Shown here in pieces: positions 21,016 to 37,401 of a stretch of 64,000 bases of DNA; position 1 is the first letter of the stretch, and every line of letters begins with the position of its first letter. A program made the translations under genes and the position numbers. The DNA lies in the NCBI RefSeq assembly GCF_003925875.1, contig NZ_AP019309.1, positions 1,798,001-1,862,000 of the forward strand, read 5' to 3'. Origin of the DNA: Intestinibaculum porci. Its GTDB lineage: Bacteria; Bacillota_I; Bacilli_A; Erysipelotrichales; Coprobacillaceae. A model generated the notes under the pieces. The model did no database searches and was not told the origin of the DNA. It worked only from the letters and a program-made list of their open reading frames with translations.

Positions 21016-21051
21016 GCCTAAAAAGCATGAAAGGCGCCTTTGGCGCCTTTC
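21016..21051 (-). terminator. Terminator of the FMN oxidoreductase gene
   Basis: A 10-bp perfect GC-rich inverted repeat (21029-21038 with 21042-21051), then ATGCTTTTT on the minus strand. Confidence 0.88.
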
Positions 21052-21625
21052 ACTTAAACAAACGTAAAATATCATCCTTCGCTTTTTCTAATAGCACATT
21101 CGTATCCGTATCCACCATATCAAGACAATCCACTTTGATTTCATAGGTCTGTTGAATGTCAAACATTTGCGTACATAATGCTTTGATATAACCATACCCA
21201 TAGGTATCATCGAGAATTCTTGATCCGGCCGTAGTGACATAATAAAGTTTCGTCGCTTTGCATAAACCATAGCTGCTGCCATCACGATGATAATCATAAG
21301 TAATCGAAGCCACGCAGATATTTTCCAGATACACCTTTAATAATGAAGGAAAAGATAAGTCATAATAAGGCGCACTGATAATAATCTGATCAGCCTGCGC
21401 AAACTGATGCGCCGCCTCAAAAACAGGATGATCAATGACATCCTGAAAAAGTAAAAGCGAACGTTCTTTCAGTGCTTCTCGATCTAAAGGATGCAGATGC
21501 TTTTCATCCAGTTTGACTTCTTCGACGATGTCATCCATTTTAACGATCTGATCAATAAGAAAACGGGCTAATCGGTTGGTGCGTGATTCATCACGAATAC
21601 ATGCATTAATATAAAGTAATTTCAT
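21050..21625 (-). CDS. FMN-dependent NAD(P)H oxidoreductase (flavodoxin fold, AzoR/MdaB-like)
   Basis: 191 residues from ATG 21625; GAGG lies 8 nt before it, while the ATG at 21631 is too close to the same site. Motifs LYINACIRDESRTNRLARFL (FMN phosphate site), IISAPYYDLSFPSLLKVYLEN and TTAGS are those of the azoreductase/quinone reductase group. The left edge of the tandem repeat (21619) falls in codons 2-3, so copies 2 and 3 of the array carry only this gene's leader and first two codons. The gene itself is intact at the left end of the array. Confidence 0.87.
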   Translation of the reverse strand: MKLLYINACIRDESRTNRLARFLIDQIVKMDDIVEEVKLDEKHLHPLDREALKERSLLLFQDVIDHPVFEAAHQFAQADQIIISAPYYDLSFPSLLKVYLENICVASITYDYHRDGSSYGLCKATKLYYVTTAGSRILDDTYGYGYIKALCTQMFDIQQTYEIKVDCLDMVDTDTNVLLEKAKDDILRLFK

Positions 21626-21686
21626 TTGCATCGCCTCTTCTTGTCTCTATTGTATCAAATACGCCAAAAGAAAAAAGGAAAAGTAT

Positions 21687-21719
21687 CCAAAAGAAAAAAA
21701 CTGTGAATATCACAGTTTT
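21687..21719 (-). terminator. Amylase terminator (copy 1; also at +3582 and +7164)
   Basis: A 10-bp perfect inverted repeat 21697-21706 with 21710-21719, followed by seven T on the minus strand; it overlaps the stop codon of the amylase gene. Identical copies lie at 25279-25301 and 28861-28883. Confidence 0.85.
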
Positions 21720-23058
21720 AATGGAAAAGGGCAATCCCTTCATCACTTTGTAAAATGATTGGCTCACCATCTGTCGCGATCGTTCCTTCACGAATTTCTA
21801 CACGCTGTCCATCAATCAGATTGGTGTAATAACCATCATGCAGACCACTTTGCCCAAGGTCTAGGAATGAGGATTGACCATGAAAATGGAATAACCCGAC
21901 TAAATAAGGATGATCCTGATCATCTCGTGGTGATGAGGCATTTTCATGATGAATGGCCATCAGGACATCATCACGAAGTACTTTCGTTTCATAAGTAGAA
22001 TTGGTCATAATCGGATTCTTCTTGACCTGGTAAAGCTTATGCATGAGCGGTGATAAATCCATTCCTGTATCATAATCAATCGGATCCTTATCAAAGAGAG
22101 CTGGCGTATGCATAGCGCCGGCTTCCTGACCATTATAAAGCATCGCAATACCTTTATTGAAATACATAAAAGCTAAATGATTGCGCAGTGCTTTTTCATC
22201 TGGAATACTGAAATGTGCACGATTACGATCATGATTTTCTAAGAAACGCGCTTTTACATAATTATCGGGATAGATCGTTTCCTGACGATTGATCGCCGCA
22301 CTATATGTTTGTAAGGACACTTTTCCAGCCAGATAATCTTTAAAGATGCCAAAGATATCATAATCATAAGCCATATCGAAAGCCTGATAAATCTCACTGT
22401 CGCTAGCGCTTGCTATGCCGCGTGAGCGGTTATAAGCCACAAAGCCTGGTTCCACGCTTTCTGCTAACCATAAAGCGCCGGGGCGAACCTTTGCCACAGC
22501 TTCGCGCGCCGCTAACCAGAAATCAACGGGGACCATGCTTGCGACATCACAGCGGAAGCCATCGACATCCTTTGCCCACATCTTCAGTGTTTCAATCTGA
22601 TAATCCCACAATTCATGATTCGCGTAATCTAAATCTACCACATCCCACCAGTCACCAACGCGATTGCCAAGCGAGCCATCGGCTTTATGGAAGAACCATT
22701 CGGGATGATGGGTCGCTAAATAAGAATCTGGTGATGTATGATTATAGACGACATCAATAATGACTTTCATCCCCCGTTTATGAATGGCCTCACATAAGCG
22801 CTGAAAATCTTCTTTGCTGCCAAACTTCGGATTGACTTCACGATAATCACGAATGGCATATGGTGAGCCTAATGTCCCTTTGCGATGCAGCTTACCAATG
22901 GGATGAATGGGCATCAGCCAAATGATATCCACACCTAAACTTTGAATCCGGTCTAAATCATTCATAACGGCCTGGAACGTCCCTTCTTTTGAATAATTGC
23001 GTACGTAAATACTATAAATAACCTCATTACGTAATTGTTTGTTTGTATCTTTTGCCAT
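21718..23058 (-). CDS. GH13 alpha-amylase-family glycosidase, copy 1
   Basis: 446 residues from ATG 23058 (MAKDTNKQL). The GH13 barrel motifs are DVVYNHTS (about 102-109), GFRCDVAS with nucleophile Asp171, WLAES with acid/base Glu200 and FLENHD with transition-state Asp277. There is no signal peptide, so it probably acts inside the cell on imported malto-oligosaccharides; exact specificity is unknown. No Shine-Dalgarno is properly placed before ATG 23058, because the IS110 element begins only a few bases upstream. A GTG at 23100 inside the IS would extend the frame by 14 codons. The native promoter and RBS are at the far right of the array. Confidence 0.93.
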   Translation of the reverse strand: MAKDTNKQLRNEVIYSIYVRNYSKEGTFQAVMNDLDRIQSLGVDIIWLMPIHPIGKLHRKGTLGSPYAIRDYREVNPKFGSKEDFQRLCEAIHKRGMKVIIDVVYNHTSPDSYLATHHPEWFFHKADGSLGNRVGDWWDVVDLDYANHELWDYQIETLKMWAKDVDGFRCDVASMVPVDFWLAAREAVAKVRPGALWLAESVEPGFVAYNRSRGIASASDSEIYQAFDMAYDYDIFGIFKDYLAGKVSLQTYSAAINRQETIYPDNYVKARFLENHDRNRAHFSIPDEKALRNHLAFMYFNKGIAMLYNGQEAGAMHTPALFDKDPIDYDTGMDLSPLMHKLYQVKKNPIMTNSTYETKVLRDDVLMAIHHENASSPRDDQDHPYLVGLFHFHGQSSFLDLGQSGLHDGYYTNLIDGQRVEIREGTIATDGEPIILQSDEGIALFH

Positions 23059-23070
23059 AATAAATACACA

Positions 23071-23097
23071 TGTCAAAACGTCGTTGCCGTTTTGACA
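23071..23097. repeat. 10-bp perfect inverted repeat near the IS110 left end
   Basis: TGTCAAAACG at 23071-23080 and CGTTTTGACA at 23088-23097, spacer 7. It lies about 13 bp upstream of the amylase start codon. It may be a subterminal structure of the IS or an RNA hairpin that hampers amylase translation. Also in copies 2 and 3. Confidence 0.8.
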
Positions 23098-23395
23098 CAC
23101 CTTGCAATGAATATATCAATTCAATGCAGGTGTTTTTCTCCTTTCCAAATTTATTTTTTTCGTTCCCTCTGTATCGTTTGATTTGTTGTGGTTACGAACC
23201 TACAATTTATTTGATGGAGATTCGTACTACAAAGCACGGTGAGGGGCGTTGTACGGTTAAACTCAATCGTTAATCAAAACAGCATAATAAATTGTGTGAG
23301 ATCAGCCATTCATGCACATCTGAGTAGACCCGTTGAGGCTGTAGATTAATCAATGACTAACAGTTAATCTTTAGTGCTGGCTGACCAGTCAACGT
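23098..23395 (+). ncRNA. Structured 5' non-coding region of IS110; candidate bridge RNA
   Basis: About 300 bases without a credible ORF, with several hairpins: 23098-23132 followed by TTTTT, 23186-23205 (stem TTGTGGTT, loop ACG), 23343-23370 (7-bp stem, 14-nt loop) and 23377-23388 (CTGG-CTGA-CCAG). Established knowledge: IS110-family elements encode a bridge RNA in a non-coding end, with two internal loops that pair with target and donor DNA. That this region is such an RNA is inference from position and structure. Also at 26680-26977 and 30262-30559. Confidence 0.55.
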
Positions 23396-23426
23396 ATCTC
23401 CTTCAAAAAATTATTTGAAAGGAGAT
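23396..23426 (+). promoter_or_regulatory. Hairpin that hides the transposase ribosome binding site
   Basis: ATCTCCTTCAAA (23396-23407) pairs with TTTGAAAGGAGAT (23414-23426) with one bulged base. The right arm contains the GAAAGGAG that serves the ATG at 23434. The structure should limit translation, especially from read-through transcripts. Identical in copies 2 and 3. Confidence 0.85.
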
Positions 23427-23433
23427 TTTTGCT

Positions 23434-24936
23434 ATGAAAGTAATTCGCAATCCGAAAGACTTTCGAATCGTTTATTCAAGAGCCTGTGGCATTGACGTTC
23501 ACAAAAACTTTATTGTATGCACAGCATGCATTCCTGGCAGCAAGCCTGATCAGTGGAAGTTCATTACCAGACGATTTTCGACTTTCTACAAGGAATTAGA
23601 GGAATGTGCTGACTGGCTTTCAAAACTTGACTGCCAGAACGTGTGCATGGAATCAACAGGCCAGTACTATATACCTGTTCATGACGTTCTTGAGAAGAAA
23701 CTGTCGAACGTCAGGGTCGTCAACCCTAAATGGGTTAAAGCCGTCAAGGGCAACAAGGACGACAAGAAAGATTCCAAATGGATCTGTCAGCTTTTTAGGT
23801 TTGGCATGACAAAATCCAGCTTTATTCCAGGAGAAGAGATCAGAACCCTGAGAGGTGAAACGAGATACCGCTATAAAGTCATCAGCATGCGAACATCCGA
23901 AATGAACCGCTATCAGAACGCACTGACAGTCGGAGGTTTCAAAGTAGATGCAGTCTTTTCTGATGTCTTCGGCAAGTCTGCTCAGGCAATCATTAACCTT
24001 GTCCTTTCGGGTAAGGAATACACTGACAAGGATATTCTGTCACTTGTTCACAAAAACTGTAAGTCATCACCTGAGAAAATTCTTGAAGCCGTAAATGGAA
24101 TCAGAATGAATGATACTCAGAAAAAAAGACTTATAATCATCAAGAATCATTTAGACTATCTCACTGATGAAATTGGCGAGATTAATAAACAAATTGACTG
24201 TCTCGTCAAGGAGATTCCAGGCATGGAAGCAGCCATTGATCACTCATGCATGGTCCCCGGCATAGACAAAAACCTGGCAGTCATCATTATGTCAGAAATT
24301 GGCACTGACATGAGCCCTTGGCCTAGTCAGTACAATCTGGTAAGCTGGGCCGGTCTGGCGCCAGGTGACAATCAATCAGCCGGAAAAAAGAAATCCGTTA
24401 AGATCTCACGAGCCGGTGTCTATCTTAAGCCTGCCCTGGTCGAAGCGGCTCACGCCGCTGTAAAGGATAAGGAGCACCCTTATTATGCCATCAAGTATAA
24501 TACAATTAAAAAACGCCGTGGCCAGAAGAGAGCTATTATTGCAATTGCACGAAAGCTCTTAATTGCAATTTATCACATGCTTCTTACTGGCGAAAAATGG
24601 AATCCTACCGATCTTGCCAACGTTGAAACACCAACTGACAAAAGAAGAAAGTACATCAAGAAAAATCTTTCTAATTCCTTTAGTCAGCTGGAAAATGCTG
24701 GGATGTTACCGGAAGAAATTATTAATTATTTGAAAGGACAATTTTTAGATTTAGAAGTTTCAGCCGAGTCTGAAGATGATAGTGATTCTTCGGATAACGA
24801 TTCATCTAAAGGCACAGAAGCCTCAGCAGACTCTGCCGAAACTAATAATAGTGAATCACCTACTGAGCAATCGGCCTTAGACAGTGATTCACAGACAGAT
24901 TTGACTTTGGTAAAAGATAAATCTGCCGCAAGCTGA
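23434..24936 (+). CDS. IS110-family DEDD transposase, copy 1
   Basis: 500 residues, longer than most IS110 proteins. The RuvC-like DEDD domain shows GIDVHKNF (Asp21), CMESTGQYY (Glu) and KDDKKDSKW (Asp pair). The C-terminal Transposase_20 part shows PGIDKNLAVIIMSEIG and WAGLAPGDNQSAGKK with the conserved serine. The last 60 residues are Asp/Ser/Glu rich and of low complexity, which is unusual. All three copies encode the same protein with no defects, so it is likely active. Confidence 0.95.
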   Translation: MKVIRNPKDFRIVYSRACGIDVHKNFIVCTACIPGSKPDQWKFITRRFSTFYKELEECADWLSKLDCQNVCMESTGQYYIPVHDVLEKKLSNVRVVNPKWVKAVKGNKDDKKDSKWICQLFRFGMTKSSFIPGEEIRTLRGETRYRYKVISMRTSEMNRYQNALTVGGFKVDAVFSDVFGKSAQAIINLVLSGKEYTDKDILSLVHKNCKSSPEKILEAVNGIRMNDTQKKRLIIIKNHLDYLTDEIGEINKQIDCLVKEIPGMEAAIDHSCMVPGIDKNLAVIIMSEIGTDMSPWPSQYNLVSWAGLAPGDNQSAGKKKSVKISRAGVYLKPALVEAAHAAVKDKEHPYYAIKYNTIKKRRGQKRAIIAIARKLLIAIYHMLLTGEKWNPTDLANVETPTDKRRKYIKKNLSNSFSQLENAGMLPEEIINYLKGQFLDLEVSAESEDDSDSSDNDSSKGTEASADSAETNNSESPTEQSALDSDSQTDLTLVKDKSAAS

Positions 24937-24941
24937 CTTCT

Positions 24942-24970
24942 CCAGAAGAATCAGCAATTTATTCTTCTGG
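24942..24970. terminator. Hairpin after the transposase gene
   Basis: A 10-bp perfect inverted repeat, CCAGAAGAAT (24942-24951) with ATTCTTCTGG (24961-24970). There is no good T run, so it may be a weak terminator or mRNA-end structure. Copies at +3582 and +7164. Confidence 0.6.
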
Positions 24971-25299
24971 AATGTAAAAGCGCTAAAACTTTATAAATTT
25001 TCAATCCATATATCTGTTGTCTTCGTTTTCAGATGATCAGATAGCCCAATGTTAGTTAGTTCTAACAATTTCCAATATCTTGGGGTAAGGGGGATTTTAC
25101 GCTTTTTCAGCTATTGCACCTAAATTATATCATCCTTACAGCAAAAATAAACTCTGTTTCATTTCACATCAATTGTTATTTCATTAATATATTCAGATTA
25201 ATTTCATTTGCATCGCCTCTTCTTGTCTCTATTGTATCAAATACGCCAAAAGAAAAAAGGAAAAGTATCCAAAAGAAAAAAACTGTGAATATCACAGTT

Positions 25300-26640
25300 T
25301 TAATGGAAAAGGGCAATCCCTTCATCACTTTGTAAAATGATTGGCTCACCATCTGTCGCGATCGTTCCTTCACGAATTTCTACACGCTGTCCATCAATCA
25401 GATTGGTGTAATAACCATCATGCAGACCACTTTGCCCAAGGTCTAGGAATGAGGATTGACCATGAAAATGGAATAACCCGACTAAATAAGGATGATCCTG
25501 ATCATCTCGTGGTGATGAGGCATTTTCATGATGAATGGCCATCAGGACATCATCACGAAGTACTTTCGTTTCATAAGTAGAATTGGTCATAATCGGATTC
25601 TTCTTGACCTGGTAAAGCTTATGCATGAGCGGTGATAAATCCATTCCTGTATCATAATCAATCGGATCCTTATCAAAGAGAGCTGGCGTATGCATAGCGC
25701 CGGCTTCCTGACCATTATAAAGCATCGCAATACCTTTATTGAAATACATAAAAGCTAAATGATTGCGCAGTGCTTTTTCATCTGGAATACTGAAATGTGC
25801 ACGATTACGATCATGATTTTCTAAGAAACGCGCTTTTACATAATTATCGGGATAGATCGTTTCCTGACGATTGATCGCCGCACTATATGTTTGTAAGGAC
25901 ACTTTTCCAGCCAGATAATCTTTAAAGATGCCAAAGATATCATAATCATAAGCCATATCGAAAGCCTGATAAATCTCACTGTCGCTAGCGCTTGCTATGC
26001 CGCGTGAGCGGTTATAAGCCACAAAGCCTGGTTCCACGCTTTCTGCTAACCATAAAGCGCCGGGGCGAACCTTTGCCACAGCTTCGCGCGCCGCTAACCA
26101 GAAATCAACGGGGACCATGCTTGCGACATCACAGCGGAAGCCATCGACATCCTTTGCCCACATCTTCAGTGTTTCAATCTGATAATCCCACAATTCATGA
26201 TTCGCGTAATCTAAATCTACCACATCCCACCAGTCACCAACGCGATTGCCAAGCGAGCCATCGGCTTTATGGAAGAACCATTCGGGATGATGGGTCGCTA
26301 AATAAGAATCTGGTGATGTATGATTATAGACGACATCAATAATGACTTTCATCCCCCGTTTATGAATGGCCTCACATAAGCGCTGAAAATCTTCTTTGCT
26401 GCCAAACTTCGGATTGACTTCACGATAATCACGAATGGCATATGGTGAGCCTAATGTCCCTTTGCGATGCAGCTTACCAATGGGATGAATGGGCATCAGC
26501 CAAATGATATCCACACCTAAACTTTGAATCCGGTCTAAATCATTCATAACGGCCTGGAACGTCCCTTCTTTTGAATAATTGCGTACGTAAATACTATAAA
26601 TAACCTCATTACGTAATTGTTTGTTTGTATCTTTTGCCAT
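25300..26640 (-). CDS. GH13 alpha-amylase-family glycosidase, copy 2
   Basis: Protein identical to copy 1. The IS110 copy 2 left end abuts its start codon on the right. Confidence 0.93.
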   Translation of the reverse strand: MAKDTNKQLRNEVIYSIYVRNYSKEGTFQAVMNDLDRIQSLGVDIIWLMPIHPIGKLHRKGTLGSPYAIRDYREVNPKFGSKEDFQRLCEAIHKRGMKVIIDVVYNHTSPDSYLATHHPEWFFHKADGSLGNRVGDWWDVVDLDYANHELWDYQIETLKMWAKDVDGFRCDVASMVPVDFWLAAREAVAKVRPGALWLAESVEPGFVAYNRSRGIASASDSEIYQAFDMAYDYDIFGIFKDYLAGKVSLQTYSAAINRQETIYPDNYVKARFLENHDRNRAHFSIPDEKALRNHLAFMYFNKGIAMLYNGQEAGAMHTPALFDKDPIDYDTGMDLSPLMHKLYQVKKNPIMTNSTYETKVLRDDVLMAIHHENASSPRDDQDHPYLVGLFHFHGQSSFLDLGQSGLHDGYYTNLIDGQRVEIREGTIATDGEPIILQSDEGIALFH

Positions 26641-26643
26641 AAT

Positions 26644-28782
26644 AAATACACATGTCAAAACGTCGTTGCCGTTTTGACACACCTTGCAATGAATATATCA
26701 ATTCAATGCAGGTGTTTTTCTCCTTTCCAAATTTATTTTTTTCGTTCCCTCTGTATCGTTTGATTTGTTGTGGTTACGAACCTACAATTTATTTGATGGA
26801 GATTCGTACTACAAAGCACGGTGAGGGGCGTTGTACGGTTAAACTCAATCGTTAATCAAAACAGCATAATAAATTGTGTGAGATCAGCCATTCATGCACA
26901 TCTGAGTAGACCCGTTGAGGCTGTAGATTAATCAATGACTAACAGTTAATCTTTAGTGCTGGCTGACCAGTCAACGTATCTCCTTCAAAAAATTATTTGA
27001 AAGGAGATTTTTGCTATGAAAGTAATTCGCAATCCGAAAGACTTTCGAATCGTTTATTCAAGAGCCTGTGGCATTGACGTTCACAAAAACTTTATTGTAT
27101 GCACAGCATGCATTCCTGGCAGCAAGCCTGATCAGTGGAAGTTCATTACCAGACGATTTTCGACTTTCTACAAGGAATTAGAGGAATGTGCTGACTGGCT
27201 TTCAAAACTTGACTGCCAGAACGTGTGCATGGAATCAACAGGCCAGTACTATATACCTGTTCATGACGTTCTTGAGAAGAAACTGTCGAACGTCAGGGTC
27301 GTCAACCCTAAATGGGTTAAAGCCGTCAAGGGCAACAAGGACGACAAGAAAGATTCCAAATGGATCTGTCAGCTTTTTAGGTTTGGCATGACAAAATCCA
27401 GCTTTATTCCAGGAGAAGAGATCAGAACCCTGAGAGGTGAAACGAGATACCGCTATAAAGTCATCAGCATGCGAACATCCGAAATGAACCGCTATCAGAA
27501 CGCACTGACAGTCGGAGGTTTCAAAGTAGATGCAGTCTTTTCTGATGTCTTCGGCAAGTCTGCTCAGGCAATCATTAACCTTGTCCTTTCGGGTAAGGAA
27601 TACACTGACAAGGATATTCTGTCACTTGTTCACAAAAACTGTAAGTCATCACCTGAGAAAATTCTTGAAGCCGTAAATGGAATCAGAATGAATGATACTC
27701 AGAAAAAAAGACTTATAATCATCAAGAATCATTTAGACTATCTCACTGATGAAATTGGCGAGATTAATAAACAAATTGACTGTCTCGTCAAGGAGATTCC
27801 AGGCATGGAAGCAGCCATTGATCACTCATGCATGGTCCCCGGCATAGACAAAAACCTGGCAGTCATCATTATGTCAGAAATTGGCACTGACATGAGCCCT
27901 TGGCCTAGTCAGTACAATCTGGTAAGCTGGGCCGGTCTGGCGCCAGGTGACAATCAATCAGCCGGAAAAAAGAAATCCGTTAAGATCTCACGAGCCGGTG
28001 TCTATCTTAAGCCTGCCCTGGTCGAAGCGGCTCACGCCGCTGTAAAGGATAAGGAGCACCCTTATTATGCCATCAAGTATAATACAATTAAAAAACGCCG
28101 TGGCCAGAAGAGAGCTATTATTGCAATTGCACGAAAGCTCTTAATTGCAATTTATCACATGCTTCTTACTGGCGAAAAATGGAATCCTACCGATCTTGCC
28201 AACGTTGAAACACCAACTGACAAAAGAAGAAAGTACATCAAGAAAAATCTTTCTAATTCCTTTAGTCAGCTGGAAAATGCTGGGATGTTACCGGAAGAAA
28301 TTATTAATTATTTGAAAGGACAATTTTTAGATTTAGAAGTTTCAGCCGAGTCTGAAGATGATAGTGATTCTTCGGATAACGATTCATCTAAAGGCACAGA
28401 AGCCTCAGCAGACTCTGCCGAAACTAATAATAGTGAATCACCTACTGAGCAATCGGCCTTAGACAGTGATTCACAGACAGATTTGACTTTGGTAAAAGAT
28501 AAATCTGCCGCAAGCTGACTTCTCCAGAAGAATCAGCAATTTATTCTTCTGGAATGTAAAAGCGCTAAAACTTTATAAATTTTCAATCCATATATCTGTT
28601 GTCTTCGTTTTCAGATGATCAGATAGCCCAATGTTAGTTAGTTCTAACAATTTCCAATATCTTGGGGTAAGGGGGATTTTACGCTTTTTCAGCTATTGCA
28701 CCTAAATTATATCATCCTTACAGCAAAAATAAACTCTGTTTCATTTCACATCAATTGTTATTTCATTAATATATTCAGATTA
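26644..28782 (+). mobile_element. IS110-family element, copy 2
   Basis: Same boundaries relative to the unit as copy 1. Confidence 0.8.
27016..28518 (+). CDS. IS110-family DEDD transposase, copy 2
   Basis: Protein identical to copy 1, with the same sequestered ribosome binding site (26978-27008). Confidence 0.95.
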   Translation: MKVIRNPKDFRIVYSRACGIDVHKNFIVCTACIPGSKPDQWKFITRRFSTFYKELEECADWLSKLDCQNVCMESTGQYYIPVHDVLEKKLSNVRVVNPKWVKAVKGNKDDKKDSKWICQLFRFGMTKSSFIPGEEIRTLRGETRYRYKVISMRTSEMNRYQNALTVGGFKVDAVFSDVFGKSAQAIINLVLSGKEYTDKDILSLVHKNCKSSPEKILEAVNGIRMNDTQKKRLIIIKNHLDYLTDEIGEINKQIDCLVKEIPGMEAAIDHSCMVPGIDKNLAVIIMSEIGTDMSPWPSQYNLVSWAGLAPGDNQSAGKKKSVKISRAGVYLKPALVEAAHAAVKDKEHPYYAIKYNTIKKRRGQKRAIIAIARKLLIAIYHMLLTGEKWNPTDLANVETPTDKRRKYIKKNLSNSFSQLENAGMLPEEIINYLKGQFLDLEVSAESEDDSDSSDNDSSKGTEASADSAETNNSESPTEQSALDSDSQTDLTLVKDKSAAS

Positions 28783-28881
28783 ATTTCATTTGCATCGCCT
28801 CTTCTTGTCTCTATTGTATCAAATACGCCAAAAGAAAAAAGGAAAAGTATCCAAAAGAAAAAAACTGTGAATATCACAGTT

Positions 28882-30222
28882 TTAATGGAAAAGGGCAATC
28901 CCTTCATCACTTTGTAAAATGATTGGCTCACCATCTGTCGCGATCGTTCCTTCACGAATTTCTACACGCTGTCCATCAATCAGATTGGTGTAATAACCAT
29001 CATGCAGACCACTTTGCCCAAGGTCTAGGAATGAGGATTGACCATGAAAATGGAATAACCCGACTAAATAAGGATGATCCTGATCATCTCGTGGTGATGA
29101 GGCATTTTCATGATGAATGGCCATCAGGACATCATCACGAAGTACTTTCGTTTCATAAGTAGAATTGGTCATAATCGGATTCTTCTTGACCTGGTAAAGC
29201 TTATGCATGAGCGGTGATAAATCCATTCCTGTATCATAATCAATCGGATCCTTATCAAAGAGAGCTGGCGTATGCATAGCGCCGGCTTCCTGACCATTAT
29301 AAAGCATCGCAATACCTTTATTGAAATACATAAAAGCTAAATGATTGCGCAGTGCTTTTTCATCTGGAATACTGAAATGTGCACGATTACGATCATGATT
29401 TTCTAAGAAACGCGCTTTTACATAATTATCGGGATAGATCGTTTCCTGACGATTGATCGCCGCACTATATGTTTGTAAGGACACTTTTCCAGCCAGATAA
29501 TCTTTAAAGATGCCAAAGATATCATAATCATAAGCCATATCGAAAGCCTGATAAATCTCACTGTCGCTAGCGCTTGCTATGCCGCGTGAGCGGTTATAAG
29601 CCACAAAGCCTGGTTCCACGCTTTCTGCTAACCATAAAGCGCCGGGGCGAACCTTTGCCACAGCTTCGCGCGCCGCTAACCAGAAATCAACGGGGACCAT
29701 GCTTGCGACATCACAGCGGAAGCCATCGACATCCTTTGCCCACATCTTCAGTGTTTCAATCTGATAATCCCACAATTCATGATTCGCGTAATCTAAATCT
29801 ACCACATCCCACCAGTCACCAACGCGATTGCCAAGCGAGCCATCGGCTTTATGGAAGAACCATTCGGGATGATGGGTCGCTAAATAAGAATCTGGTGATG
29901 TATGATTATAGACGACATCAATAATGACTTTCATCCCCCGTTTATGAATGGCCTCACATAAGCGCTGAAAATCTTCTTTGCTGCCAAACTTCGGATTGAC
30001 TTCACGATAATCACGAATGGCATATGGTGAGCCTAATGTCCCTTTGCGATGCAGCTTACCAATGGGATGAATGGGCATCAGCCAAATGATATCCACACCT
30101 AAACTTTGAATCCGGTCTAAATCATTCATAACGGCCTGGAACGTCCCTTCTTTTGAATAATTGCGTACGTAAATACTATAAATAACCTCATTACGTAATT
30201 GTTTGTTTGTATCTTTTGCCAT
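28882..30222 (-). CDS. GH13 alpha-amylase-family glycosidase, copy 3
   Basis: Protein identical to copies 1 and 2. It is the copy nearest the native promoter, but 2.14 kb of IS110 in antisense orientation lies between them. Confidence 0.93.
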   Translation of the reverse strand: MAKDTNKQLRNEVIYSIYVRNYSKEGTFQAVMNDLDRIQSLGVDIIWLMPIHPIGKLHRKGTLGSPYAIRDYREVNPKFGSKEDFQRLCEAIHKRGMKVIIDVVYNHTSPDSYLATHHPEWFFHKADGSLGNRVGDWWDVVDLDYANHELWDYQIETLKMWAKDVDGFRCDVASMVPVDFWLAAREAVAKVRPGALWLAESVEPGFVAYNRSRGIASASDSEIYQAFDMAYDYDIFGIFKDYLAGKVSLQTYSAAINRQETIYPDNYVKARFLENHDRNRAHFSIPDEKALRNHLAFMYFNKGIAMLYNGQEAGAMHTPALFDKDPIDYDTGMDLSPLMHKLYQVKKNPIMTNSTYETKVLRDDVLMAIHHENASSPRDDQDHPYLVGLFHFHGQSSFLDLGQSGLHDGYYTNLIDGQRVEIREGTIATDGEPIILQSDEGIALFH

Positions 30223-30225
30223 AAT

Positions 30226-32364
30226 AAATACACATGTCAAAACGTCGTTGCCGTTTTGACACACCTTGCAATGAATATATCAATTCAATGCAGGTGTTTT
30301 TCTCCTTTCCAAATTTATTTTTTTCGTTCCCTCTGTATCGTTTGATTTGTTGTGGTTACGAACCTACAATTTATTTGATGGAGATTCGTACTACAAAGCA
30401 CGGTGAGGGGCGTTGTACGGTTAAACTCAATCGTTAATCAAAACAGCATAATAAATTGTGTGAGATCAGCCATTCATGCACATCTGAGTAGACCCGTTGA
30501 GGCTGTAGATTAATCAATGACTAACAGTTAATCTTTAGTGCTGGCTGACCAGTCAACGTATCTCCTTCAAAAAATTATTTGAAAGGAGATTTTTGCTATG
30601 AAAGTAATTCGCAATCCGAAAGACTTTCGAATCGTTTATTCAAGAGCCTGTGGCATTGACGTTCACAAAAACTTTATTGTATGCACAGCATGCATTCCTG
30701 GCAGCAAGCCTGATCAGTGGAAGTTCATTACCAGACGATTTTCGACTTTCTACAAGGAATTAGAGGAATGTGCTGACTGGCTTTCAAAACTTGACTGCCA
30801 GAACGTGTGCATGGAATCAACAGGCCAGTACTATATACCTGTTCATGACGTTCTTGAGAAGAAACTGTCGAACGTCAGGGTCGTCAACCCTAAATGGGTT
30901 AAAGCCGTCAAGGGCAACAAGGACGACAAGAAAGATTCCAAATGGATCTGTCAGCTTTTTAGGTTTGGCATGACAAAATCCAGCTTTATTCCAGGAGAAG
31001 AGATCAGAACCCTGAGAGGTGAAACGAGATACCGCTATAAAGTCATCAGCATGCGAACATCCGAAATGAACCGCTATCAGAACGCACTGACAGTCGGAGG
31101 TTTCAAAGTAGATGCAGTCTTTTCTGATGTCTTCGGCAAGTCTGCTCAGGCAATCATTAACCTTGTCCTTTCGGGTAAGGAATACACTGACAAGGATATT
31201 CTGTCACTTGTTCACAAAAACTGTAAGTCATCACCTGAGAAAATTCTTGAAGCCGTAAATGGAATCAGAATGAATGATACTCAGAAAAAAAGACTTATAA
31301 TCATCAAGAATCATTTAGACTATCTCACTGATGAAATTGGCGAGATTAATAAACAAATTGACTGTCTCGTCAAGGAGATTCCAGGCATGGAAGCAGCCAT
31401 TGATCACTCATGCATGGTCCCCGGCATAGACAAAAACCTGGCAGTCATCATTATGTCAGAAATTGGCACTGACATGAGCCCTTGGCCTAGTCAGTACAAT
31501 CTGGTAAGCTGGGCCGGTCTGGCGCCAGGTGACAATCAATCAGCCGGAAAAAAGAAATCCGTTAAGATCTCACGAGCCGGTGTCTATCTTAAGCCTGCCC
31601 TGGTCGAAGCGGCTCACGCCGCTGTAAAGGATAAGGAGCACCCTTATTATGCCATCAAGTATAATACAATTAAAAAACGCCGTGGCCAGAAGAGAGCTAT
31701 TATTGCAATTGCACGAAAGCTCTTAATTGCAATTTATCACATGCTTCTTACTGGCGAAAAATGGAATCCTACCGATCTTGCCAACGTTGAAACACCAACT
31801 GACAAAAGAAGAAAGTACATCAAGAAAAATCTTTCTAATTCCTTTAGTCAGCTGGAAAATGCTGGGATGTTACCGGAAGAAATTATTAATTATTTGAAAG
31901 GACAATTTTTAGATTTAGAAGTTTCAGCCGAGTCTGAAGATGATAGTGATTCTTCGGATAACGATTCATCTAAAGGCACAGAAGCCTCAGCAGACTCTGC
32001 CGAAACTAATAATAGTGAATCACCTACTGAGCAATCGGCCTTAGACAGTGATTCACAGACAGATTTGACTTTGGTAAAAGATAAATCTGCCGCAAGCTGA
32101 CTTCTCCAGAAGAATCAGCAATTTATTCTTCTGGAATGTAAAAGCGCTAAAACTTTATAAATTTTCAATCCATATATCTGTTGTCTTCGTTTTCAGATGA
32201 TCAGATAGCCCAATGTTAGTTAGTTCTAACAATTTCCAATATCTTGGGGTAAGGGGGATTTTACGCTTTTTCAGCTATTGCACCTAAATTATATCATCCT
32301 TACAGCAAAAATAAACTCTGTTTCATTTCACATCAATTGTTATTTCATTAATATATTCAGATTA
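30226..32364 (+). mobile_element. IS110-family element, copy 3
   Basis: The right end at 32364 adjoins A at 32365 and the GGAGG ribosome binding site of the amylase. This copy therefore still shows the original right insertion junction. Confidence 0.82.
30598..32100 (+). CDS. IS110-family DEDD transposase, copy 3
   Basis: Protein identical to copies 1 and 2, with the sequestered ribosome binding site at 30560-30590. Confidence 0.95.
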   Translation: MKVIRNPKDFRIVYSRACGIDVHKNFIVCTACIPGSKPDQWKFITRRFSTFYKELEECADWLSKLDCQNVCMESTGQYYIPVHDVLEKKLSNVRVVNPKWVKAVKGNKDDKKDSKWICQLFRFGMTKSSFIPGEEIRTLRGETRYRYKVISMRTSEMNRYQNALTVGGFKVDAVFSDVFGKSAQAIINLVLSGKEYTDKDILSLVHKNCKSSPEKILEAVNGIRMNDTQKKRLIIIKNHLDYLTDEIGEINKQIDCLVKEIPGMEAAIDHSCMVPGIDKNLAVIIMSEIGTDMSPWPSQYNLVSWAGLAPGDNQSAGKKKSVKISRAGVYLKPALVEAAHAAVKDKEHPYYAIKYNTIKKRRGQKRAIIAIARKLLIAIYHMLLTGEKWNPTDLANVETPTDKRRKYIKKNLSNSFSQLENAGMLPEEIINYLKGQFLDLEVSAESEDDSDSSDNDSSKGTEASADSAETNNSESPTEQSALDSDSQTDLTLVKDKSAAS

Positions 32365-32414
32365 TCCTCCTCACTTTTTTCATTATACAAAAGTGTCATG
32401 AAAAAGACATGACA
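32365..32414 (-). promoter_or_regulatory. Orphaned amylase promoter, operator-like repeat and ribosome binding site
   Basis: Read on the minus strand: a 7-bp inverted repeat TGTCATG-n7-CATGACA (32394-32414), a -10 box TATAAT (32382-32387), then GTGAGGAGGA (32365-32374), an excellent ribosome binding site whose last base touches the IS110 right end. No gene start follows, whereas the amylase start codon is found at the other end of the IS with no RBS. The -35 box is poor and overlapped by the inverted repeat, so a regulator may act there. Confidence 0.75.
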
Positions 32415-32444: not shown

Positions 32445-32476
32445 AAAAAAAGATATGACTGCCAATTGGCAGTCAT
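32445..32476 (-). terminator. Strong terminator of the candidate structured RNA
   Basis: A 22-bp perfect palindrome at 32455-32476 (arms ATGACTGCCAA/TTGGCAGTCAT) followed by ATCTTTTTTTC on the minus strand. Confidence 0.88.
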
Positions 32477-32858
32477 ACCGGTTCCATGAAACGTGAGGGA
32501 AATCTCAGGATCTCTGCAGTGATCCCGCCTTTCCCATCATTTCTGATGTTTAAGGGCAATTAATGGAATTGTAACACAAACTCCTAATTCGAATGACACC
32601 TAAGGGTCATTGATACATGTCAGAAGATCATGCTCACCCTTACGTGTGATTCATTTTTATTAAAGGCAGAGGTTATTGTTTTACAATGTGTATGATCCAT
32701 TAGAATCCAACCATCTCCTTCCGGTGAACAGGCTTCCAGGTATTACCCCTTCTTTATCTTCCAAAAGGTATTCATCCTTTTTTCAAGAAGGAATAACAAT
32801 CTCCTTTCTTCTTTATCACCACTTGCAATATTTACATGCATGTCTCTTGCTTAAGCTT
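32445..32858 (-). ncRNA. Candidate structured RNA of about 410 nt (identity unknown)
   Basis: A consensus promoter at 32865-32892 would start a transcript near 32858 that ends at the terminator above. No convincing ORF lies inside. Local hairpins on the minus strand include one closed by a GAAA tetraloop (CATCA-GAAA-TGATG, 32549-32562 region), GGATC...GATCC around 32505-32522, ATTGT-AAA-ACAAT near 32675, AAAAGG...CCTTTT near 32770 and AATGAC...GTCATT near 32600. It is not tmRNA, RNase P RNA or SRP RNA by the motifs I know. It could be a free-standing RNA or a long leader of the amylase. Confidence 0.5.
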
Positions 32859-33022
32859 AATTATATTATAGTCTTGTTTTCATATTTGTCAATATCATAT
32901 GATTTTATCTATTATTTATGATATTCATAATTATTTGTATTATTCCTATATATAAAGTGCCGATATGATCGTCATTCTCTAATTATGTGATAATATTTTA
33001 TCATCTTGTAGGAATTTAATAA
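32848..33022 (-). repeat. Upstream regulatory module, copy A (related to 39328-39527)
   Basis: On the plus strand both copies start with CTCTTGCTTAAGCTTA, then a promoter with 16-bp spacing, and end with the pattern TGTGATAAT....TTATCATC/ATTATCATG..GGAATTT.ATAAAT. The middle is diverged but alignable. Copy A contains TGATAA-TATT-TTATCA. Confidence 0.65.
32865..32892 (-). promoter_or_regulatory. Promoter of the candidate structured RNA
   Basis: Minus strand -35 TTGACA (32887-32892), spacer 16, -10 TATAAT (32865-32870). The same boxes, spacing and downstream TAAGCTTAAGCAAGAG occur at the urease promoter. Confidence 0.8.
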
Positions 33023-35679: not shown

Positions 35680-37401
35680 TTAGAAGAAATAGTAACGCTG
35701 CGCCAGTGGGACTTCTTCGACTGGATCACAGGTAATTTCTTCGCCATCAATCGTAACGATAAAGCTCTGAGGATCGATCTTGATCGTCGCTGGTGCATAA
35801 TTGTTTAATTTCATATCACGTTTCGTCAGATTTCTTGTCTTATGCACCGGTAAGACAATTTTATCTAATCCAAGCTGCTCTTTAATGCCATGTTCATAGG
35901 CATAAGTCGATACAAAGGTAATACTGGTTTTGGCCATACCCTTGCCGTAGCCGCCATAAAGATCACGCATCATGCGCGGTTCTGGTGTTGGCAGTGAAGA
36001 GGAAGCATCGCCCACAACGCCATAAGCGATGACGCCAGCTTTGAGCACTAATTTTGGTTTTGCGCCAAAGAATTTAGGATCCCAAATGACTAAGTCGGCA
36101 TATTTGCCTACTTCAACAGAACCGATATAATCAGCAACACCATTGACAATGGCTGGGTTAATCGTATATTTAGCGACATAACGTTTGATACGTTCATTAT
36201 CGGAATATTCATAGTCACCCTTTAATGGACCACGCTGCTTTTTCATTTTATCCGCTAGCTGCCAGCAGCGCATCGCCACTTCGCCGACACGGCCCATCGC
36301 CATCGCATCACTGGTCATGACGGATAACGCGCCCATGTCATGCAGCACATCTTCCGCTGCGACCGTCTGTTTACGAACACGAGATTCCGCAAAAGCCACA
36401 TCTTCTGGCACCTTTGGGTCTAAGTTATGACAGACCATCGTCATATCGAATAATTCATCAATAACATTGGTTGTATAAGGATTGGTTGGGTTGGTCGAGC
36501 TTGGCAAAATGTTCTGCTCTCCTGCCACGATCATAATATCAGGCGCATGACCGCCGCCGGCACCTTCAGTATGGAAAGTATGAACCGTTCGCCCAGCGAA
36601 GGCATTGAGCGTATTTTCTACGAAGCCGCCTTCATTTAACGAATCGGTATGAACAGCGTAAGAAACATCATATTCATCGGCTGCCTTGATGGAGTTATCG
36701 ATCCCGGCAGCGGTTGCGCCCCAGTCTTCATGGGTTTTAATGCCTGCCGCTCCGGCTCTGACCTGTTCGGCAATGGTTTCCGGAGTAGCCCCGGCGCCTT
36801 TGGCTAAAAAGCCATAATTAAGCGGATCATGATCGACCGCTTCTAACATGCGGTGAATATGATAAGCTCCCGGCGTTGTCGTAGCCGAGTTAGAGCCATC
36901 CGCCGGACCGGTTCCGCCGCCAAATAAAGTGGTAATGCCGTTATCTAAAGCCGCATGCGCTAAACCGGTCGATAAGTAATGGACATGTAAGTCAATGCCG
37001 CCAGCGGTGACAATCATCCCTTCGCCAGAAATTGCTTCGGTAGAAGCGCCAACGACAAAGTCGATATCATCCATGATATCAGGGTTGCCGCCTTTCCCGA
37101 TAGCGAGAATCTTGCCATCACGAATGCCGATATCGGCTTTATAAATACCGGTATAATCAATGATAAGCGCACCGGAAATAATGGTATCGGCGACTAAAGG
37201 ATTTTTCTCACGGGTCATCGTCGCATTGACGCCCATGCCATCTCTTAAAACTTTCCCGCCGCCAAATTTACTTTCCTGACCATGCACGGTGTAATCTTTT
37301 TCGACGCGGGCAAATAAGTTGGTATCGCCTAAGCGGACACTGTCGCCTTCGGCTGGTCCAAACATCTGGGAATACTGTTTACGATCCATTTTAAAACTCA
37401 T
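35680..37401 (-). CDS. ureC: Urease alpha subunit UreC
   Basis: 573 residues. All catalytic residues sit 5 positions after those of the Klebsiella enzyme: His139, His141, carbamylated Lys222 ([11 protein letters not shown]), His251, His277, flap Cys324 and His325, and Asp365. The residue after His325 is Asn (CHNLDP) where CHHLDP is usual. Urease hydrolyses urea to ammonia and carbamate with two Ni ions. The start overlaps ureB by 4 bp. In a gut or rumen organism it would supply nitrogen and buffer acid. Confidence 0.98.

What the first reader, a model, noticed from the sequence alone, without database searches (positions are those of the whole stretch)
21619..32364. Three exact head-to-tail copies of a host amylase gene plus an IS110 element
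The period is exactly 3582 bp and the genes in all three copies encode identical proteins. IS110 elements are normally found as single insertions; here a chromosomal GH13 gene is amplified together with the IS. Identity across copies means recent amplification or ongoing homogenisation. It may raise amylase dosage, or be a side effect of IS activity. An assembly error is the main alternative, since the array is longer than most short-read inserts.
Basis: seen in the sequence. Interest (0 to 1): 0.9.

Follow-up and report, generated by a model that had tools for sequence, protein, structure and literature searches.

The report
IS110-bounded triple tandem amylase duplication
A gut bacterium carries three identical head-to-tail copies of a sugar-polymer enzyme gene joined to a jumping gene, and each joint falls exactly on the jumping gene's own end, which points to the jumping gene's RNA-guided recombinase as the cause rather than chance.

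Summary
Confirmed: window 21617-32364 is three identical 3582-bp copies plus a trailing TA. The genome is one 3.21-Mb contig, and unit and IS occur nowhere else in it. New: the array boundaries are not arbitrary. Related elements show that the IS110 element is 23063-25198 (2136 bp, TA core dinucleotides), inserted between the Shine-Dalgarno (SD) sequence and the ATG of the GH13 gene. In 42 of 42 relatives with a readable left end, that end abuts CAT (start codon); right ends face an SD. The putative bridge RNA carries an SD-like guide and a guide that matches the left junction (21/27 distinct pairs; shuffled mean 1.0). Each unit runs from a TA in the neighbouring flavin-reductase gene to the IS right-end TA, so the duplication junction is RE-TA joined to ordinary chromosome. 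Best explanation: recombination between the IS right end and an off-target TA 1.44 kb beyond its left end made a composite [amylase+IS] unit; homologous recombination then set copy number. The junction has only 2 bp homology, so an assembler is unlikely to have invented it; the number three is unproven without reads. Raised amylase dosage is doubtful: each copy starts behind an IS hairpin, without its own SD. New variant of a known kind; moderately interesting.

The parts
21617..32364 (.). whole array: 3 x 3582 bp plus final TA
21617..21618 (.). site X: TA core at the left boundary of the array, inside the first codons of the flavin-reductase gene
   Evidence: sequence
21617..25198 (.). unit copy 1
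25199..28780 (.). unit copy 2
28781..32362 (.). unit copy 3
21718..23058 (-). GH13 amylase copy 1, ATG at 23056-23058, 446 aa
25300..26640 (-). GH13 amylase copy 2
28882..30222 (-). GH13 amylase copy 3
23063..25198 (+). IS110 element copy 1 (2136 bp), flanked by TA at 23061-23062 and 25199-25200
   Evidence: ends inferred from relatives:
26645..28780 (+). IS110 element copy 2
30227..32362 (+). IS110 element copy 3
23434..24936 (+). IS110 DEDD transposase (500 aa), copy 1; identical copies at 27016-28518 and 30598-32100
23226..23400 (+). putative bridge RNA / seekRNA region in the left end, copy 1 (edges approximate)
   Evidence: conserved block in 23 elements; no Rfam match
23239..23247 (+). 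SD-like target guide (GGTGAGGGG)
   Evidence: role inferred
23283..23292 (+). guide CATAATAAAT, identical to the left junction at the amylase start
23343..23350 (+). donor-loop guide AGATTAAT, resembling the right end CAGAT-TA
   Evidence: role inferred
23068..23100 (-). terminator-like hairpin in the IS left end just before the amylase ATG (perfect 10-bp core at 23071-23097)
25189..25210 (.). duplication junction 1: IS right end CAGAT, TA, then site-X sequence ATTTCATTTG
28771..28792 (.). duplication junction 2, same sequence
32365..32374 (-). native SD of the amylase gene (GTGAGGAGGA on the minus strand), right of the array
32382..32387 (-). TATAAT, probable -10 box of the native amylase promoter
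   Evidence: sequence; inference
21050..21625 (-). flavin-reductase-like gene whose first codons contain site X (second ATG at 21623-21625 is the likely start)
   Evidence: start inferred from SD spacing

Best explanation
An IS110-family element first inserted at TA between the SD and the ATG of a chromosomal GH13 gene, at a site its bridge RNA recognises. The IS right-end core (CAGAT-TA) then recombined with an off-target TA (site X) in the next gene, 1.44 kb beyond the IS left end. This happened between sister chromosomes, or through an excised circle of amylase plus IS. It produced an RE-TA-X junction and a direct duplication of a composite [amylase+IS] unit bounded by TA on both sides. Ordinary homologous recombination between the identical 3.58-kb copies then gave three copies and keeps them identical. 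Shown: array, TA boundaries, IS ends by comparison, target type, guide match. Inferred: that the recombinase made the RE-X joint, the circle or sister route, and the RecA step.
For: The right boundary of every unit is the exact IS terminus: RE TTCAGATTA is the same end seen in five G016 copies at five sites and in about 15 independent relatives. All four array boundaries carry TA. TA is supported as the core because the IS-free homologue in the same genus reads CATAATA before its SD, matching the reconstructed empty site. In the relatives the right end is followed by an SD-like sequence (one weak case, L044); only the two internal array junctions lack one altogether. The IS is absent from the rest of the genome, so the array is not built on another copy. 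IS621 is reported to make off-target insertions that mostly keep the core, and rare deletions and inversions between sites (PMC11208160).
Against: Site X looks nothing like the normal target: 4 of 10 in a simple score, reached by 50% of all TA sites in the window. A 2-bp match at a joint is also what microhomology-mediated duplication leaves. No second such array was seen in 19 other genomes holding relatives. Three elements (L041, L043, L067) do not fit a strict TA core at the left end. [quoted passage not shown]
Confidence: 0.55

Rival explanations
1. Two-IS route. A second IS copy once sat at site X. Unequal homologous recombination between the IS at X on one sister chromosome and the IS at the amylase start on the other gave amylase-IS-amylase-IS with no IS on the left (or the left IS was later excised). 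Further homologous exchange gave three copies.
For: Gives exactly the observed structure, including RE-TA-X junctions, using classical steps; IS110 elements form excised circles (PMC11187229).
Against: Site X does not resemble a target of this IS, no IS remains at X, and the IS is found nowhere else in the genome.
Confidence: 0.18
2. Illegitimate duplication. A replication or repair error with 2-bp microhomology (TA) duplicated the segment, and its end coincides with the IS terminus by accident or because the IS end is break-prone.
For: Only TA is shared between the two breakpoints; tandem duplications with short microhomology are common in bacteria (general knowledge).
Against: A random breakpoint would hit the exact IS core position roughly once in thousands; here it does so with zero offset.
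Confidence: 0.15
3. Assembly or population artefact. The chromosome has one copy (or two) and the extra units come from mis-set repeat number, or from an extrachromosomal circle of amylase plus IS that was folded into the contig.
For: 10.7 kb of perfect repeat; identical copies are what an assembler would write for a repeat of uncertain number; no reads are available here.
Against: The RE-to-X junction joins sequences with 2 bp of homology, and neither occurs elsewhere in the genome, so the junction itself must come from real molecules; the genome is one contig, 98.9% complete.
Confidence: 0.12

Closest known systems
IS110-family insertion sequences with bridge RNA (IS621) or seekRNA (ISEc21)
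   Same: DEDD transposase with PF01548 and PF02371; long non-coding left end with a conserved block; guide sequences matching the flanking DNA; 2-bp core
   Different: One chromosomal gene is fused with the IS into a tandem unit; the transposase has a roughly 65-residue acidic tail that the 430-aa relatives lack
IS900 of Mycobacterium avium subsp. paratuberculosis
   Same: IS110-family element whose reported target motif CATGNNNNNNTCTCCTT (PMC8141618) is also a start codon plus an SD on the opposite strand; the title of Doran et al. 1997, cited there, says it targets translation initiation signals
   Different: No long opposite-strand ORF like hed in this IS; different host phylum; guides here are readable in the left-end block
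IS-mediated tandem gene amplification (IS26- or composite-transposon type; general knowledge)
   Same: Direct repeats of gene plus IS, expected to expand and contract by homologous recombination
   Different: No IS copy flanks the array on the left; the repeat is not bounded by two pre-existing IS copies but by one IS end and a chromosomal TA

Membership tests
IS110 family | DEDD (PF01548) and Transposase_20 (PF02371) domains | tested here: met
   E 1.4e-21 and 8.8e-15, both over the curated cut-off
IS110 family | non-coding end encoding a guide RNA that matches the insertion site | tested here: met
   conserved left-end block in 23 elements; guide equals left junction in 21/27 distinct pairs against mean 1.0, maximum 6 in 10,000 shuffles. 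RNA itself not shown
IS110 family | same 2-bp core on both sides of the element | tested here: inconclusive
   TA on both sides here, supported by the IS-free homologue; three relatives deviate at the left end
IS110 family | circular intermediate with abutted ends | not testable with these tools
   needs outward PCR
IS900-type targeting of translation starts | inserts between start codon and SD | tested here: met
   42 of 42 readable left ends abut CAT; right ends are followed by SD complements
IS900 | hed ORF along the opposite strand | tested here: not met
   no minus-strand ORF of 100 aa or more inside 23063-25198
Composite transposon or IS26-type amplification | IS copies on both outer sides of the amplified gene | tested here: not met
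   left edge is chromosome-TA-amylase, no IS

The most novel reading that the evidence does not exclude
The IS110 recombinase used its true right end and an unrelated chromosomal TA as a pseudo left end, so that a neighbouring host gene became part of a larger mobile unit able to circularise and stack in tandem: a one-IS composite element, and a natural case of bridge-RNA recombination building a gene amplification.
Probability: 0.35. Interest if true: 0.65.

Novelty: new variant of a known kind. Interest (0 to 1): 0.45.

Why it matters
Bridge-RNA recombinases are being developed as genome-editing tools, and their natural side reactions are poorly known. A natural array whose joints sit exactly on an IS110 end would show that these elements can amplify neighbouring genes from one IS copy. 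The clade also shows a putative guide RNA with an SD-like guide, so it targets gene starts in general rather than one locus.

Tried and rejected
AT (of CAT) as the core: rejected as less likely because L032 and L035 have CAGACTA at the right end, and the IS-free homologue already has CATAATA. Site X as a normal target: score at chance. Another IS copy in the genome at TTCAGATTATTTATACCTCC (G000 947459): a chance match in what reads as coding sequence. Rfam match for the left-end RNA: none. Empty sites in the genus of G016: no second species held. Other tandem arrays: G041 copies 9060 bp apart share only the IS; none in 19 other genomes with relatives (at most 5 candidates per genome were scored). 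RNAalifold on the left-end alignment gave only weak support (18 pairs, 8 with two-sided changes). No paper was found describing IS110-driven tandem amplification, but subscription papers are not held.

Full report
Observation. At shift 3582 the window is identical to itself without a break from 21617 to 28782, so 21617-32364 is three copies of 3582 bp plus a final TA; the copies are letter-identical. The window lies in a genome of one contig, 3,212,924 bp, 98.9% complete; the unit and the IS alone each occur at these three places only. Each copy has a GH13 gene and an IS110 transposase gene in opposite orientation. The host is in the same family as Thomasclavelia cocleata and Candidatus Stoquefichus: contigs of equal length appear under same-family handles G021 and G022.

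The IS ends. Five copies of a related IS in genome G016 (58% identical transposase) define its ends by comparison: all share the right end TTCAGATTA and a left end that begins after CAT. The same right end occurs in about 15 further relatives, followed by an SD complement such as CCTCC (L044 is a weak case). In 42 of 42 relatives with a readable left end the base triplet before it is CAT, the reverse of ATG, and most of these open into a reading frame. The element therefore inserts between SD and start codon. In the window the left end stands directly at the amylase ATG (23056-23058), and the amylase SD and a TATAAT box lie right of the array, at 32365-32387. The IS-free homologue in the same genus (G001) reads GCCATAATA-AAAACCTCC, and the window with the IS removed reads GCCATAATA-TCCTCC. 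This supports TA as the core and gives the IS as 23063-25198, 2136 bp. Homologues align from the same ATG, and in G001 the amylase is next to the same cupin gene, so it is a resident chromosomal gene.

The guide RNA. The left end of all these elements holds a conserved block. One part resembles an SD (GGTGAGGTG or GGTAGGAGGAG; GGTGAGGGG here). Another has the form YATNNNAAN, and at its four variable positions it equals the left junction in 21 of 27 distinct pairs, against a mean of 1.0 and a maximum of 6 in 10,000 shuffles. A third part resembles the right end (AGATTAAT against CAGAT-TA). This is the pattern expected of a bridge RNA or seekRNA (PMC11208160, PMC11187229). The RNA itself is inferred; Rfam has no match and consensus folding was weak.

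The array. The four boundaries are: AAAG-TA-ATTTC (left edge, in the first codons of the flavin-reductase gene), CAGAT-TA-ATTTC (twice, internal), and CAGAT-TA-TCCTCC (right edge). So each unit starts at a TA in ordinary chromosome and ends at the exact core of the IS right end. The two internal junctions are the only right ends seen here with no SD-like sequence beside them. A breakpoint that falls with zero offset on an IS terminus points to the IS machinery. The left partner, site X, has the TA but otherwise scores at chance as a target, so it would be an off-target or pseudo-end event. Off-target insertions that mostly keep the core, and rare deletions and inversions, are reported for IS621. 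I infer recombination of RE with X between sister chromosomes or through a circle, then homologous recombination between the copies. The alternatives are a transient IS at X followed by unequal exchange, plain microhomology duplication, and a wrong copy number in the assembly. The junction has 2 bp of homology and neither side is repeated elsewhere, so an assembler is unlikely to have invented it; the number of copies is not proven.

Consequence. All three amylase copies start behind the IS left end, which has no SD at the right place and carries a 13-pair terminator-like hairpin. Native promoter and SD serve at best the third copy, through 2.1 kb of IS. In copies 1 and 2 the sequence upstream of the IS is a duplicated flavin-reductase leader, whose first codons now run into the IS and stop after four codons (read from the sequence). 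Higher amylase output is thus not implied; the array may be neutral and unstable. Other GH13 genes exist in the genome.

Comparison. Targeting of translation starts is known for IS900 (motif CATGNNNNNNTCTCCTT, PMC8141618). This element shares that target type but has no long opposite-strand ORF. A single-IS tandem amplification with a boundary on the IS110 core was not found in the papers held, and not in 19 other genomes with relatives.

Noticed in passing
L088, L089, L090 (own genome, about 1.496, 1.353 and 1.997 Mb): A second IS110 type (422-aa transposase, three copies) also has left flanks rich in SD complements (CTCTCC, TTTCCTCC, CCCTTC), so it may target gene starts too.
   Followed up: partly
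L049, L050, L052, L053, L057, L060, L069, L080: In a subgroup of relatives the IS left end itself supplies GGAG 6 bases before the host ATG, so insertion would replace the SD it displaces; the window element lacks this.
   Followed up: partly
window 24727-24933: The window transposase has a roughly 65-residue tail rich in S, D, E and T beyond the end of the 430-aa relatives.
   Followed up: no
window 32452-32892, minus strand: A perfect TTGACA-16-TATAAT promoter is followed by about 390 bases and a strong terminator, between the urease genes and the amylase start; no Rfam match. Possibly an unnamed small RNA.
   Followed up: no
window 36960-37248, plus strand: Rfam 5_ureB_sRNA (74 bits) in antisense to the urease gene ORF at 35680-37401.
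   Followed up: no
window 32394-32414: Inverted repeat TGTCATG-N7-CATGACA next to the probable native amylase promoter; looks like an operator.
   Followed up: no
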